A DNA stretch of 64,000 bases from Effusibacillus pohliae DSM 22757 (GTDB lineage Bacteria; Bacillota; Bacilli; Tumebacillales; Effusibacillaceae). The position numbers were made by a program, and so were the translations under genes. The notes under the pieces were generated by a model, which saw nothing but the letters and a program-made list of their open reading frames with translations, did not search any database and was not told the DNA's origin. Numbering within the stretch: position 1 is the first letter of the stretch; every line of letters starts with the position of its first letter. Below are positions 12,600-48,336 of the stretch, piece by piece. The DNA lies in the NCBI RefSeq assembly GCF_000376225.1, contig NZ_AQXL01000126.1:1-64000 (forward strand). The letters run 5' to 3'.

Positions 12600-13084
12600 A
12601 TGTCATGTGGTCACGATCGTCGATGCGCCGCCTCCGGTGACACGGTGGCGATGATCCCGGTTGTGACCGGGCAAAAGACGCCGCTCATTACGCCGTCCGG
12701 GACAGCGGCGAAAGTGACGGTTGACGAGCGAAGCGGCAAGGTAAACGAGTGGGTGTTCCGCGCCTGCTTCATCGACCCGTTCCAGGGGACGGTGACGGGC
12801 AAGTTTGCCGTTAACGGTCTGATGGCGAAAACGGTTGTAATTTATACGGATGCTTCTAACGACTATTCGAAAGGTTTCGCCAAGTCGTTGCAAGAAGAAT
12901 TCACGAAACGTGGCTACCGGTACCGGTACGGCTAAAATCAAGGGAGCGTTGGCAAGCATTAAGGATTACAAAGTGGCGACAGGGGGTGATTTCGTTCGAC
13001 GACAAGCACAATCCGATCAAATCGGCCGTTTTGATCGAGCTGAAAGACGGAAAGCCAACGTTCAAAACGAAGGTCAATCCGTAG
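12600..13084 (+). pseudogene. relic of a branched-chain amino-acid binding protein gene
   Basis: Residues PLITPS to SKGFAKSL match the middle of the intact LivJ at 16762-17958; both share VTVDER, GKVNEWVFRACFIDPFQG and VVIYTD. After about 12925 the frame breaks. A second piece reads AKIKGALASIKDYKVATGG, then in another frame SFDDKHNPIKSAVLIELKDG and a C-terminal KVNP stop, matching the last 50 residues of LivJ. The signal peptide, N-terminal lobe and about 150 central codons are gone. It lies directly before livH, where livJ is normally found. Confidence 0.85.
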
Positions 13085-16761: not shown

Positions 16762-17958
16762 ATGAAGAAAAAACTGATAACCGCAACCGCCATCGCGGCA
16801 CTGGCGCTTGGCGCATTGGCAGGCTGCGGCGGTAAGCAGCAGGCAAACGGCAACGCCGGGGGAGGCAGCAGCTCCGGGGACACGATCAAGATTGGCACCG
16901 ACTTTGAGATGACCGGCGGTCAAGCGGCGTTCGGTACATCGGCGTTGAAAGGCGTCAAACTGGCCGTCAAGGAGATTAACGCAGCAGGCGGGGTGCTCGG
17001 CAAGCAAATTCAGATTATCGACGCCGACAACGCGTCCAAAAACGACGAATCCGCCCGCGCGGCGCAAAAACTGATTTCGAACGATAAAGTGGTCGCTTTG
17101 ATCGGGGCCACCACTTCCACCAACACACTGGCGGCAGTGCCGGTAGCGATGGAGAAGAAGATTCCGTTGATCACTTCTTCCGCCACCAACCCGAAAGTAA
17201 CGGTTGACGAGCGGACCGGCAAGGTCAATGAGTGGGTGTTCCGGGCTTGCTTCATCGACCCGTTCCAGGGCAAGGTGATGGCCGATTTCGCAACGAAAGA
17301 GCTGAAGGCGAAGACGGCGGTGATCTACACCGATACGTCGAGTGACTATTCAAAAGGCCTGACCAAGTTCTTTGAAGAAACCTTTACCAAGAACGGCGGC
17401 CAGATTTTGGCGAAAGAATCCTATCAGCAGAAAGACACCGACTTCAAGGCGGTGCTCACCCGCATCAAGGAAAAGAAACCGGATGTGATCTACGTCCCTG
17501 GCTACTATGAAGAGGTCGGCAAAATCATCAAACAGGGCCGTGAACTGGGAATCACCGCTCCGTTTATGGGCGGCGACGGTTGGGACGCTCCGCAGCTGAT
17601 CGACATCGCCGGCAAGGAGAACCTGAACAACACTTACATCTCCAACCACTATGCGCCGGATGACAACTCGCCGGAAGTCCAGCAGTTCGTCCAGTCGTTC
17701 AAGAAAGAATACAACGGCGAAACACCGGATGCGATGGCGGTTCTCGGTTACGATGCAATGAAGATGCTGGCGGACGCGATCAAGCGGGCCGGCAGCACCG
17801 ATCCGGCGAAAATCAAAGACGCGCTTGCAGCGACCAAAGATTTCAAAGCGGCGACCGGTTCCATCACGCTCAATGAGAACCACGACCCTGTGAAATCGGC
17901 CGTTGTACTGGAGTACAAAGACGGCAAACAAGTATTCAAAGGAAAGGTAAATCCGTAA
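16762..17958 (+). CDS. livJ: branched-chain amino-acid substrate-binding lipoprotein
   Basis: 398 residues. The signal ends in a lipobox, ALAGC, followed by a Gly/Asn/Ser linker; it is anchored outside the membrane. The Peripla_BP_6 fold is clear: GTDFEMTGGQAAFGTSALKGVKLAV, ALIGATTSTNTLAAVPV and AVLGYDAMKMLADAI. It delivers ligand to LivHM. A decayed paralogue lies before livH (12600-13084), so this copy after livF probably took over. A terminator follows. Confidence 0.92.
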   Translation: MKKKLITATAIAALALGALAGCGGKQQANGNAGGGSSSGDTIKIGTDFEMTGGQAAFGTSALKGVKLAVKEINAAGGVLGKQIQIIDADNASKNDESARAAQKLISNDKVVALIGATTSTNTLAAVPVAMEKKIPLITSSATNPKVTVDERTGKVNEWVFRACFIDPFQGKVMADFATKELKAKTAVIYTDTSSDYSKGLTKFFEETFTKNGGQILAKESYQQKDTDFKAVLTRIKEKKPDVIYVPGYYEEVGKIIKQGRELGITAPFMGGDGWDAPQLIDIAGKENLNNTYISNHYAPDDNSPEVQQFVQSFKKEYNGETPDAMAVLGYDAMKMLADAIKRAGSTDPAKIKDALAATKDFKAATGSITLNENHDPVKSAVVLEYKDGKQVFKGKVNP

Positions 17959-24306: not shown

Positions 24307-25048
24307 ATGTTGAAGAAAATGGTAGTGGCTGTCCTGTCTGCTGTAATACTGCTGACCAGCATGGAGTCTCTGTCGTTTGCTCAACCAAAAAACTCTGCCG
24401 ATCAGATTAGTACCCCGGTAGATTTCACAACTACGAATTCTAGCCAGTTTGAAATCGAACCTGCGGCAATTTTAATCCCTGACAAGTTTTCACTGACATC
24501 TTCAAGACGAACAGAGAGTAATCAAAAACATGAAGGAGTCAGGTGTTGACGAGGCAATTTAAAAGAAACTGATTAATAAACTAAAAAGAGGCGAAAAGTG
24601 GGATTCCATGAAACCGGAAATGTTGCCACTGGCCAAAAAAGAAGTGAAGACCACTCCCACGAGTCGTGAAACAAGATACACTTTTCCTGATGGCTCCATG
24701 ATTATTCAGAGCGTAGATGGTGGAACGACTAGCTGTGGAACAGGATATTGCAACTTTACAAACATGACCGTAAAAGAAACACGGTGGTATTGTGAAGGTA
24801 GATTTCAAGCTGATTTTACGCTGGTTAACGGCGGGGACGACTACATCTCACGCGTTTATGATGCCCAGGTTTGGTCAGCCGGATCGATCAGTGATGTTTC
24901 ATTAAATCTCACCAAAGCATGGGAAGATCTTAACGGTCCAGCAGAAGCCGTGTTGCGGTGGGTGGCGTACAATGGTGTTACATCCACCACATATATACTA
25001 AAACTCAAAGTTGGCGGGAATAATTATTGGGATGAATGTAACTATTAA
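24307..25048 (+). pseudogene. secreted protein gene broken by a frameshift and a stop
   Basis: The first frame (24307-24549) gives a signal peptide (MLKKMVVAVLSAVILLTS, ending SFA) and about 60 residues. Another frame then continues from about 24520: IKNMKESGVDEA, an in-frame TAA, then KKLINKLKRGEKWDSM, joining the long frame from ATG 24608 to 25048. That frame has FPDGSMIIQSVDGGTTSCGTGYCNF and ends YWDECNY. The continuity of sense across the breaks argues for one decayed gene. The GEKWDSM-then-FPDGS pattern recurs in uncharacterised secreted proteins of Bacillales. Base composition is lower in GC than around it. Separate expression of the 146-residue piece cannot be excluded, but it would lack a signal peptide. 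Confidence 0.65.
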
Positions 25049-25091
25049 CGGGGGACATTCCATCGTTAATTCTGTAAGAGGGGGAATGTAG

Positions 25092-25196
25092 ATGGAGATG
25101 TATCCGGGAACGATCTTTTTCCAGATTGTGCTTTTGATCATGGTTGTCGCGATATTGGGTGTCGGAATTTTACTCTACAGATCCCGCAAAAAGTAA
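25092..25196 (+). CDS. 34-residue single-span membrane protein
   Basis: ATG 25092 has AGAGGGGGAATGTAG upstream. The product is MEMYPGTIFF, a hydrophobic helix (QIVLLIMVVAILGVGILL), then YRSRKK. The positive C-terminus suggests N-out topology. It lies 43 bp after the broken secreted-protein gene and may have been its partner. Function unknown. A similar arrangement occurs at 47339-47485. Confidence 0.65.
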   Translation: MEMYPGTIFFQIVLLIMVVAILGVGILLYRSRKK

Positions 25197-45864: not shown

Positions 45865-46059
45865 CTAGTTGTACACAGTAGCTTGAACATGGATTCGGAA
45901 AGTAACAGGCTCGAAAGCTGAAGTAACCGCGTCATATTAAGGTTTATTGGTCATAAAAAGTTGTTAATTTTTTTGCGAAAAAACTGGACACTGCATTCCT
46001 CTTGTCAAATGGTTAAAGCAACCTTACAAATAACCACGAGAGGAAGTGTCCTTAGCAAC

Positions 46060-46408
46060 ATGGTAACACAGACATCGAACCATGCGCCAGAACAAAAAAC
46101 ACGCCGTGAACGCCGAATCGAAATCCTCCAGGAGCGTCGTCGGATCAAGAAGATCGTGAAGAAGCTGCGACCCGTCACCTTAAGCCAACTGTATCTACAG
46201 GGCCGGAACGCTCGTCGATCATCTGCTGGACTGTGCGTTCTCGGTTACACGCGTTTTCAGCACATGAATGCGCTACAGTCGGATCCCGGTTACCAGATCA
46301 TCATCGGTATCCGACCGTTTTCCTGACGAAAGCACCTTCCGCGGCTTCTTGAGCAAGCTCTCCTGGAGCCATCTGATTCAGCTTGTCGCCCTGAATCGGC
46401 CTAAATGA
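46060..46408 (+). pseudogene. probable transposase N-terminal remnant
   Basis: ATG 46060 opens a basic protein with RRERRIEILQERRRIKKI and KLRPVTLSQLYLQGRNARRSSAGLCVLGYTRF, ending IGIRPF. One base of frameshift at about 46321 leads into PDESTFRGFLSKLSWSHLIQLVALNRPK and a stop at 46408. The sense across the shift suggests one broken gene. GGACACT near 45985 and AGTGTCC near 46045 form an inverted repeat at the likely element end. The exact IS family is not known to me. Confidence 0.5.
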
Positions 46409-47324
46409 GATAAGCACCACGGTAACAGACAGCAAAGGCAATAAGCAAAAGATTACACACGGCGGTCAGGACAAGATTGCCAAAGAAAAAGGGAAGCCAA
46501 AACAAAACCCTAACAAAATCCTTACTGAAGATGAAAACAAATATGATATTATTGGTTATACTCTTAACGAGAATTCACCTCATAAGTTGTCTGTTGTGTC
46601 CATTTCCGTAACATCGGAAAATGGCAAATTGGAACCAAATGAAGGTCTTTTCTTACGGGAAATCTTGGATAACCTTTCTTACGTGATTGACAAAGCCAAT
46701 AAAGCGAACAAGCCCACAACCTTTATAAAAAAGAATAGAGTTTTGGCAGGAAATAACGTCATTGTGGCGACGGCTCCTTATAGATTTGAAGCGTCGGCAT
46801 ATTATCAGAGACTTGGCCAAGAAGCTTTATTAGCTGGTAAAACGTTCACCGATTGGGTCTTGGAACAAAACAAAGATGAGACAGTTGCCGACTATGATTT
46901 CTTCCTGATTAAAGATTACACTACCATTCAAGGTTATAATGGTTGGTATGGTAAAAAGCTGAAGACAGACCACGACATCCCTTGGGACACTGATTACATC
47001 CTCGAATGGGGACCCAAAGACAGCAGTACAAGCCCTTATCAAGTTACATTTGGGTATCCGTTTAATGTACAATTGCAGTTCAGCATGAGCTCAAACCCGA
47101 TAGTTGATGAAATGGGTTCTCAGCCTTATGATTACGGGCGTTGGGAGGTATATAAGAATTTTGGATATATTAACGGGGATCAATTTCAACCCGCAACAAC
47201 TTGGAAATCATACGGTACTTGGGCGGATATGGATATCAGAGAATTTGGCAATTTCCAAAGATCCGATAGTGCGTATGGGCCTGCTGACAGCTCGATAAAG
47301 ATAGACGTTAGTCACGATTATTAA
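46395..47324 (+). pseudogene. 5'-truncated gene for an unknown, probably secreted protein
   Basis: The frame is open from 46395 and reads STTVTDSKGNKQKITHGG and KIAKEKGKPKQNPNKILTE before any start codon, then continues through TTG 46587 to 47324. So the N-terminus, and probably a signal peptide, was lost where the transposase remnant adjoins. The rest is Tyr/Asp/Trp-rich, with YDFFLIKDYTTIQGYNGWYG and FGYPFNVQLQFSMSS, suggesting a beta-rich extracellular domain. No family recognised. Composition is far more AT-rich than core genes. A 245-residue product from TTG 46587 remains possible. Confidence 0.6.
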
Positions 47325-47338
47325 TAAAAAGGTGCGTT

Positions 47339-47485
47339 ATGAAACAAATAGATAAGGATTTTTTGGATTGGGTGAAAACAATCAGCCTAGTTGTGATCGC
47401 TATTACGTCAGTGATTTATGTCTTTCAATTTGCTGATATAATTGAAATGTTGAAAAAAATAGTTATTGCTGTGGGAAATAGATAG
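47339..47485 (+). CDS. 48-residue single-span membrane protein
   Basis: ATG 47339 with AAAAAGGTGCGTT upstream, 14 bp after the previous stop. Sequence MKQIDKDFLDWVKTI, hydrophobic LVVIAITSVIYVFQFADII, then EMLKKIVIAVGNR. It may be a partner of the truncated secreted protein, as in the pair at 24307-25196. Function unknown. Confidence 0.6.
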   Translation: MKQIDKDFLDWVKTISLVVIAITSVIYVFQFADIIEMLKKIVIAVGNR

Positions 47486-48015: not shown

Positions 48016-48336
48016 ATGCAAAAAGTTCTTATCACATTGCTACTAACGATTAGCGTGACCGGATGTAACCGACAAAATTCTTTGCCCAATGAGATTCTAG
48101 TCACTCTTCCTGCAATTGCGGTGGATGGAACCAAATGGGGTTTTGAAGCGAATAAAATGACAGGAAAAATTGATGAGCTAGTGATAGGCGAAGATGGAAA
48201 AAAGAAAGATTACAAGGTGGGTGATGAGATAAATATTAATGGTCAAAATTATTTAGTAAAAGAATTTCTGTACGATGAACATTATTTAGAGAACAAAAAA
48301 GGGGGAGTTATAGTTAAATTACAATCGAAAAAGTGA
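48016..48336 (+). CDS. small predicted lipoprotein
   Basis: 106 residues. MQKVLITLLLTISVTGC is a lipoprotein signal with lipobox VTGC. The body is Lys/Asp/Glu-rich with KVGDEININGQNYLVKEFLYDEHY. GTTAAGGGGGTATAT precedes the ATG. No family recognised. It is the last gene of the AT-rich island. The gap 48337-48552 holds no supported feature. Confidence 0.65.
   Translation: MQKVLITLLLTISVTGCNRQNSLPNEILVTLPAIAVDGTKWGFEANKMTGKIDELVIGEDGKKKDYKVGDEININGQNYLVKEFLYDEHYLENKKGGVIVKLQSKK

What the first reader, a model, noticed from the sequence alone, without database searches (positions are those of the whole stretch)
24307..25196. Decayed secreted protein gene followed by an intact tiny membrane protein, echoed at 46.4-47.5 kb
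In two separate AT-rich loci, a damaged gene for a secreted-type protein is directly followed by a 34- or 48-residue single-span protein with good translation signals. Loss of the large secreted partner with retention of the small membrane protein is what one expects of toxin/immunity or antimicrobial systems.
Basis: inference. Interest (0 to 1): 0.55.

Follow-up and report, generated by a model that had tools for sequence, protein, structure and literature searches.

The report
Decayed secreted-protein cassettes with membrane partners
The window holds two broken copies of two different bacterial gene pairs, each made of a secreted protein and a tiny membrane protein; relatives show that the pairing is real and spread across many bacteria, which suggests an antibacterial protein with its protector, though that function has not been tested.

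Summary
Locus A (24307-25196) is a secreted-protein gene with a frameshift and a TAA, then an intact 34-residue single-span ORF. Locus B (46395-47485) has lost its 5' third beside a transposase remnant and is followed by a 48-residue single-span ORF. A and B are unrelated families without a Pfam or NCBIfam model; their small partners are unrelated too.

Intact relatives confirm linkage. By one mechanical rule, 15 of 26 non-redundant A loci have a small single-span ORF with a ribosome-binding site within 200 bp downstream, against 5 of 345 control genes and 1 of 47 secreted-like controls. Two more carry it convergently in an ArsR operon, the sdpABC/sdpRI layout. In 39 Brevibacillales genomes, B and partner b each occur in 5 and coincide in 4.

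A predicted A structure matches Listeria Lmo2686/Zea, a secreted hexameric RNA-binding protein (Z 11.0; next entry 4.5). The partner resembles DUF4083.

"Large gene lost, small gene kept" is not supported: a 105-bp gene would escape by chance in 75% of cases, and Brevibacillus G346 has a nonsense-mutated b without B. Toxin/immunity is the best single explanation, unproven (about 0.45).

The parts
24307..24546 (+). 5' part of gene A: start codon, signal peptide and beginning of the mature protein, up to the frame's stop after the frameshift
   Evidence: three-frame translation; signal peptide judged by eye
24506..25048 (+). rest of gene A in another frame, one in-frame TAA at 24560-24562; Zea-like C-terminal domain
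   Evidence: profile match E 5.9e-67, 1 TAA inside; relatives; fold
25040..25110 (+). stem-loop that pairs the ribosome-binding site and start of small gene a
   Evidence: z -2.8, 1 of 200 shuffles folds as well; single sequence, covariation not tested
25092..25196 (+). small gene a: 34-aa single-span protein, G-T-x-x-F-Q motif, lysine-rich C terminus
45961..46404 (+). transposase remnant (weak IS1380 match) next to the truncation of gene B
   Evidence: E 0.0033, below cut-off; single copy in this genome; no plasmid match
46395..47324 (+). gene B, 5'-truncated: profile positions 137-431 of 431 remain, no start or signal peptide
47339..47485 (+). small gene b: 48-aa single-span protein; homologues linked to B in other genera

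Best explanation
Each locus is a decayed copy of a mobile two-gene cassette: a Sec-secreted protein plus a dedicated single-span membrane protein. In A the secreted protein carries a Zea-like beta domain behind a short helical segment; in B it is an unrelated acidic protein of about 430 residues. I think the secreted protein most likely acts against neighbouring or sibling cells at the envelope. The small protein, predicted N-out/C-in in type A from its charges, would sit in the producer's membrane and block it, and in the Niallia/Exiguobacterium arrangement would also signal to an ArsR-type repressor as SdpI does to SdpR. Shown: family membership, linkage, broken large genes, fold similarity of A. 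Inferred: secretion (signal peptides by eye), topology, antibacterial action, immunity. In this genome neither large gene can make an intact product; the two small genes still can.
For: Linkage A-a: 15 of 26 non-redundant loci by one rule (one, L051, looks like an unrelated PspC-type protein) against 5 of 345 control genes (Fisher 5e-16) and 1 of 47 secreted-like controls (7e-8). Two further non-redundant loci, three records in all, have the partner convergently behind an ArsR-type gene, the published sdpABC/sdpRI layout (PMC1626106, passages). Linkage B-b: related small proteins tandem in 3 and divergent in 4 of 10 B loci; 4 of 5 B genomes carry b among 39, hypergeometric 3e-4. The N-terminal motif G-[TDNV]-x-x-[FY]-Q stands in 5 of 16 A partners and in 0 of 154 control hydrophobic start-stop combinations. 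The small ORF is coding in Niallia: 7, 0, 19 differences at codon positions 1, 2, 3. Patchy occurrence: A in 12 and B in 10 of 398 class genomes (a few of these weak), neither in the 3 other genomes of the genus. Plasmid relatives. Small cationic hydrophobic immunity proteins are known for circular bacteriocins (PMC6131525, passages).
Against: No activity data. 7 of 19 intact A loci, and a Priestia plasmid locus found after the count, lack a recognised partner. Partners are very divergent and partly only alike in being hydrophobic. The nearest solved fold, Zea, is an RNA-binding protein for which the passages I read claim no antibacterial action. Small a-like proteins of the DUF4083 kind also occur without a secreted neighbour (L111, L114, L118, L119). 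b decays where B is absent (G346), and G284 has B without b. No PADLOC match, but that library covers phage defence.
Confidence: 0.45

Rival explanations
1. The small protein is an accessory of the secreted protein (membrane receptor, anchor, export or assembly helper) and the secreted protein has a non-killing job such as extracellular RNA binding like Zea.
For: A fold matches Zea, Z 11.0, rmsd 2.3 over 98 residues; Zea binds RNA outside the cell and its relatives occur in environmental Bacillus (PMC6907008, passages). b is broken where B is absent, as expected of an accessory.
Against: No conserved basic character: crude net charge of the mature A proteins ranges from -16 to +5 over 12 relatives. 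Zea itself is not described with such a partner in the passages read. About a third of intact A loci lack a partner.
Confidence: 0.33
2. The pair is a signalling device: the secreted protein is a ligand, the small membrane protein its sensor, with the ArsR gene as output; killing is not involved.
For: ArsR-small operon convergent to A in three records of two genera.
Against: Most A loci show no ArsR gene next to the small gene; many small proteins have only a few residues outside the membrane span.
Confidence: 0.12
3. The small ORFs are bystanders: AT-rich foreign DNA often gives short hydrophobic ORFs and the neighbourhood means nothing.
For: AT-rich loci; weak similarity among type-a proteins; controls were not matched for base composition.
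Against: Enrichment against controls, homologous b in two different orientations, codon-position pattern.
Confidence: 0.05
4. Small a belongs to a general DUF4083-like membrane family that rides with many genes, and its link to A is one of several uses, not a dedicated pair.
For: L111 and L114 pass the DUF4083 cut-off and stand away from secreted genes; the partner of L057 scores 22.7 against a cut-off of 25.4. In four B. velezensis-group plasmid records the same 37-aa gene stays behind rep while the secreted gene differs.
Against: The five best hits of an a-profile in 200 genomes all lie next to A, though these five were also in the profile.
Confidence: 0.05

Closest known systems
Lmo2686 / Zea of Listeria monocytogenes (PDB 4K15)
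   Same: Signal peptide and beta fold of the C-terminal domain (Foldseek E 4e-4, VIA Z 11.0; next entry 4.5).
   Different: 13% identity over the aligned part; A proteins are longer (about 220-300 aa against 177) with an N-terminal helical segment and, mostly, a small membrane partner; no sequence-profile match to the PDB entry.
DUF5626 family (NCBI name of the Exiguobacterium relative)
   Same: NCBI names WP_012390448.1, an A relative on plasmid pEspB, a DUF5626 family protein.
   Different: 0 of 13 A proteins match a Pfam DUF5626 model at E up to 10; 0 papers hold the term.
DUF4083 (PF13314), small membrane proteins
   Same: G-[DT]-x-I-F-Q start, one span, basic or coiled tail; L057 partner E 9.7e-5.
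   Different: Window a is shorter and gives no DUF4083 match; linked partners stay under the cut-off; 0 papers hold the term.
SdpC with SdpRI of Bacillus subtilis
   Same: Convergent ArsR-type plus membrane-protein operon after a secreted-protein gene in Niallia and Exiguobacterium (PMC1626106 passages).
   Different: SdpI is described as polytopic, these are single-span; no SdpA/SdpB-like genes were noted in the ORFs listed around these loci; sequence relation to SdpC not tested.
Circular-bacteriocin immunity proteins
   Same: Small, cationic, hydrophobic, in the same cluster as the bacteriocin gene (PMC6131525 passages).
   Different: The partner here is a Sec-secreted protein of 220-450 residues, not a small circular peptide, and no ABC transporter or cyclisation gene was noted.

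Membership tests
Zea / Lmo2686 fold | Zea-like beta domain | tested here: met
   model m934cdaf86830 (10 sequences, mean pLDDT 75; 81-95 per ten-residue block over residues 151-256) against 4K15: Z 11.0, rmsd 2.3, 98 residues
Zea / Lmo2686 fold | basic, RNA-binding surface | tested here: inconclusive
   crude net charges of mature A relatives from -16 to +5; surface and binding not tested
Zea / Lmo2686 fold | homohexameric ring | not testable with these tools
   single-chain prediction only
DUF5626 (Pfam) | match to the family model | tested here: not met
   0 of 13 members at E up to 10
DUF4083 (PF13314) | score at or above the curated cut-off | tested here: not met
   window a: no match; L012 partner E 0.07; L055 E 0.078; L057 22.7 of 25.4 bits
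Sdp-type toxin/immunity | convergent ArsR plus membrane immunity operon | tested here: met
   only in L031, L032, L040, not in the window
Sdp-type toxin/immunity | polytopic SdpI-like protein | tested here: not met
   partners have one hydrophobic span
Toxin/immunity pair in general | toxicity of the large protein, protection by the small one | not testable with these tools
   needs expression experiments
Toxin/immunity pair in general | genetic linkage of the two genes | tested here: met

The most novel reading that the evidence does not exclude
Secreted proteins with the Zea fold are in the main an undescribed class of antibacterial (or RNA-carrying) effectors with a dedicated DUF4083-like single-span partner, and Listeria Zea is an offshoot of that system. 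That would give an ecological origin for a secreted RNA-binding effector and a role to an uncharacterised small-membrane-protein family.
Probability: 0.3. Interest if true: 0.75.

Novelty: new variant of a known kind. Interest (0 to 1): 0.5.

Why it matters
It links an orphan family of secreted proteins to a solved fold with a known activity (extracellular RNA binding) and shows that small, mostly unannotated membrane ORFs travel with it. If the pair is toxin and immunity, it is a protein bacteriocin type with a very small protector, spread over Bacillota and plasmids. If not, it still gives a testable membrane partner for Zea-like proteins.

Tried and rejected
Phage origin: no match in phages or viral contigs. 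Phage defence: no PADLOC match. A and B as one family: rejected, hhalign probability 0.6%; a and b likewise, 0.2%. B fold: single-sequence model useless, pLDDT 35. BFVD search: no match at E 0.001 or better. Whether the transposase remnant truncated B by insertion: not shown, single copy in this draft, no plasmid match. Weak hits dropped: L002, L003, L004, L015, L030 (other genes or short weak matches), L063-L065 (B at E 5e-5 to 9e-5), L052 (fragment at a contig end). Near-identical or duplicate loci left out of the 26: L007, L032, L018, L020, L021, L060, L061 and re-fetches of the same places. L138 was found after the count and is not in it; it lacks a recognised partner. L051's ORF (PspC-like by eye) counts as a hit in the mechanical 15. 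Controls were 19 stretches of 20 kb that I chose by place from 17 genomes plus this window, not matched for base composition.

Full report
What is there. At 24307 an ATG with a GGAG motif opens a frame with a signal peptide that stops at 24546; homology continues in another frame from about 24506 to the TAA at 25046-25048 and holds one in-frame TAA at 24560-24562. At 25092 a 34-residue ORF with one hydrophobic span and a lysine-rich end follows a GAGGGGG motif. At 46395-47324 an open frame matches positions 137-431 of a 431-position family profile, so the first third is missing; before it lies a transposase-like remnant (weak IS1380 match). At 47339 a 48-residue single-span ORF follows. Both loci are AT-rich (A gene 43% GC, B gene 40%, flanks 53-58%). 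Neither gene is found in the three other held genomes of the genus.

Relatives of A. A single-protein search found matches in 12 of 398 class genomes, own included (those of G009 and G106 were weak and dropped); profile searches found it in 3 of 39 Brevibacillales and 7 of 398 phylum genomes, own included. Named relatives: Tepidibacillus decaturensis, Thermoactinomyces sp. DSM 45892, Brevibacillus porteri, Paenibacillus macerans and P. chondroitinus, Niallia taxi, Peribacillus frigoritolerans and two Clostridium MAGs; plasmids of Exiguobacterium arabatum, Niallia sp. Man26 and Priestia megaterium. No Pfam model fits: in 13 members no family was hit by more than one, none near a cut-off.

Relatives of B. 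Matches in 10 of 398 class genomes, own included (one, L030, a short weak match, dropped), 5 of 39 Brevibacillales, and the Cytobacillus oceanisediminis plasmid pN497-ZHONG. In the phylum search 4 of 398 had a match, of which three at E 5e-5 to 9e-5 were dropped and the fourth is the window. Ten B loci were kept.

Linkage of A and a. Rule: 26-80 aa, hydrophobic 19-residue window of at least 2.2, ribosome-binding motif, start within 200 bp downstream on the same strand. It holds for 15 of 26 non-redundant A loci, for 5 of 345 control genes and for 1 of 47 secreted-like control genes. One of the 15 (L051) looks like an unrelated PspC-type protein, leaving 14. In L031, L032 and L040 the partner is convergent, second in an operon behind an ArsR-type gene (HTH_5 E 8.9e-12 for L032). 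This is the published layout of sdpABC and sdpRI (PMC1626106, passages read). Of 19 A loci that I judged intact by eye, 12 have a partner (10 tandem, 2 convergent); L036 has a frameshifted remnant and L010, L037, L038, L042, L051 and L059 have none recognised. L010 is cut by a contig end. Of 6 broken loci, 3 have a partner (window, L012, L013) and 3 do not (L014, L043, L058). L011 lies at a contig end and has one; it is counted apart.

Linkage of B and b. Small proteins sharing a pattern A-I-S-x-x-Y-x-x-x-x-x-D-x-I (loosely, in several of them) with b lie downstream in the window, L027 and L033, and divergently upstream in three Brevibacillus-genus loci (L046, L047, L048) and L045: 7 of 10 B loci. 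L044, L028 and L029 have none recognised. A search with the b profile in 39 Brevibacillales gave 5 strong hits (E below 1e-20): four in B genomes and one, in G346, with a nonsense codon and no B; G284 has B without b.

An independent check from the small side. A profile of six type-a partners searched in 200 class genomes gave its five best hits next to A, but these five were in the profile. The next hits were DUF4083-like proteins away from secreted genes (L111, L114, L118, L119) and one, L112, a 34-aa protein right after a secreted protein of a third family, C. Family C also occurs on Bacillus velezensis and B. amyloliquefaciens plasmids, where a 37-aa single-span ORF sits between rep and C. 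On the related plasmid pBV454-1 the same ORF stays, identical in DNA, while C is replaced by another secreted protein. This may reflect immunity retained, or a small gene tied to rep.

Fold. A ten-sequence alignment led by the Thermoactinomyces protein gave a model with mean pLDDT 75 (81-95 per ten-residue block over residues 151-256). Against the PDB its only clear match is 4K15, Lmo2686: Foldseek E 4e-4, VIA Z 11.0, rmsd 2.3 over 98 residues, next entry Z 4.5. Lmo2686 is Zea, a secreted hexameric protein that binds RNA, with relatives mainly in Bacillus (PMC6907008, passages read). In Listeria it belongs to the lmo2689-lmo2686 operon with ftsW2 and rodA3, induced by some cell-wall antibiotics (PMC6686043, passages read). 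The A relatives have no common basic charge, so RNA binding cannot be carried over.

How it may work. Best single explanation: a secreted antibacterial protein with a single-span protector; 0.45. The main rival is a non-killing secreted protein, perhaps RNA-binding, with a membrane accessory; 0.33. The retention argument does not help: with 2 lesions in 742 bp, a 105-bp gene escapes with probability 0.75.

Novelty. No paper in the library holds DUF5626 or DUF4083; of the five papers that hold lmo2686 I read passages of two; two wider searches on small membrane proteins with bacteriocin or immunity terms listed nothing on this pair (listings only). I found no description of the pair in these searches, which is not proof that none exists.

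Noticed in passing
window 12600-12935 and 16762-17958: Fragment that reads like a second, damaged copy of the branched-chain amino acid binding-protein gene found intact at 16762-17958 (by eye, from the ORF list).
   Followed up: no
window 48016-48336: Intact small lipoprotein-like ORF (106 aa) in the same AT-rich stretch as B; no family above cut-off.
   Followed up: partly
window 25040-25110: Stem-loop that could hide the ribosome-binding site of small gene a (z -2.8); some other loci have hairpins after the large gene by eye.
   Followed up: partly
L139 2401-3421: Plasmid pBV454-1: secreted gene behind rep replaced by an unrelated secreted gene beside a 57-aa membrane ORF, while the 37-aa ORF and 40 bases before it are identical in four plasmid records.
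   Followed up: partly
L059 (reverse complement 1467-2418): A relative with two tandem copies of the helical K-L-x-x-G-E-x-x-D-S module.
   Followed up: no
L038 3261-3746: In Brevibacillus porteri A is followed not by a tiny protein but by a 161-aa protein with an N-terminal span; no family.
   Followed up: partly
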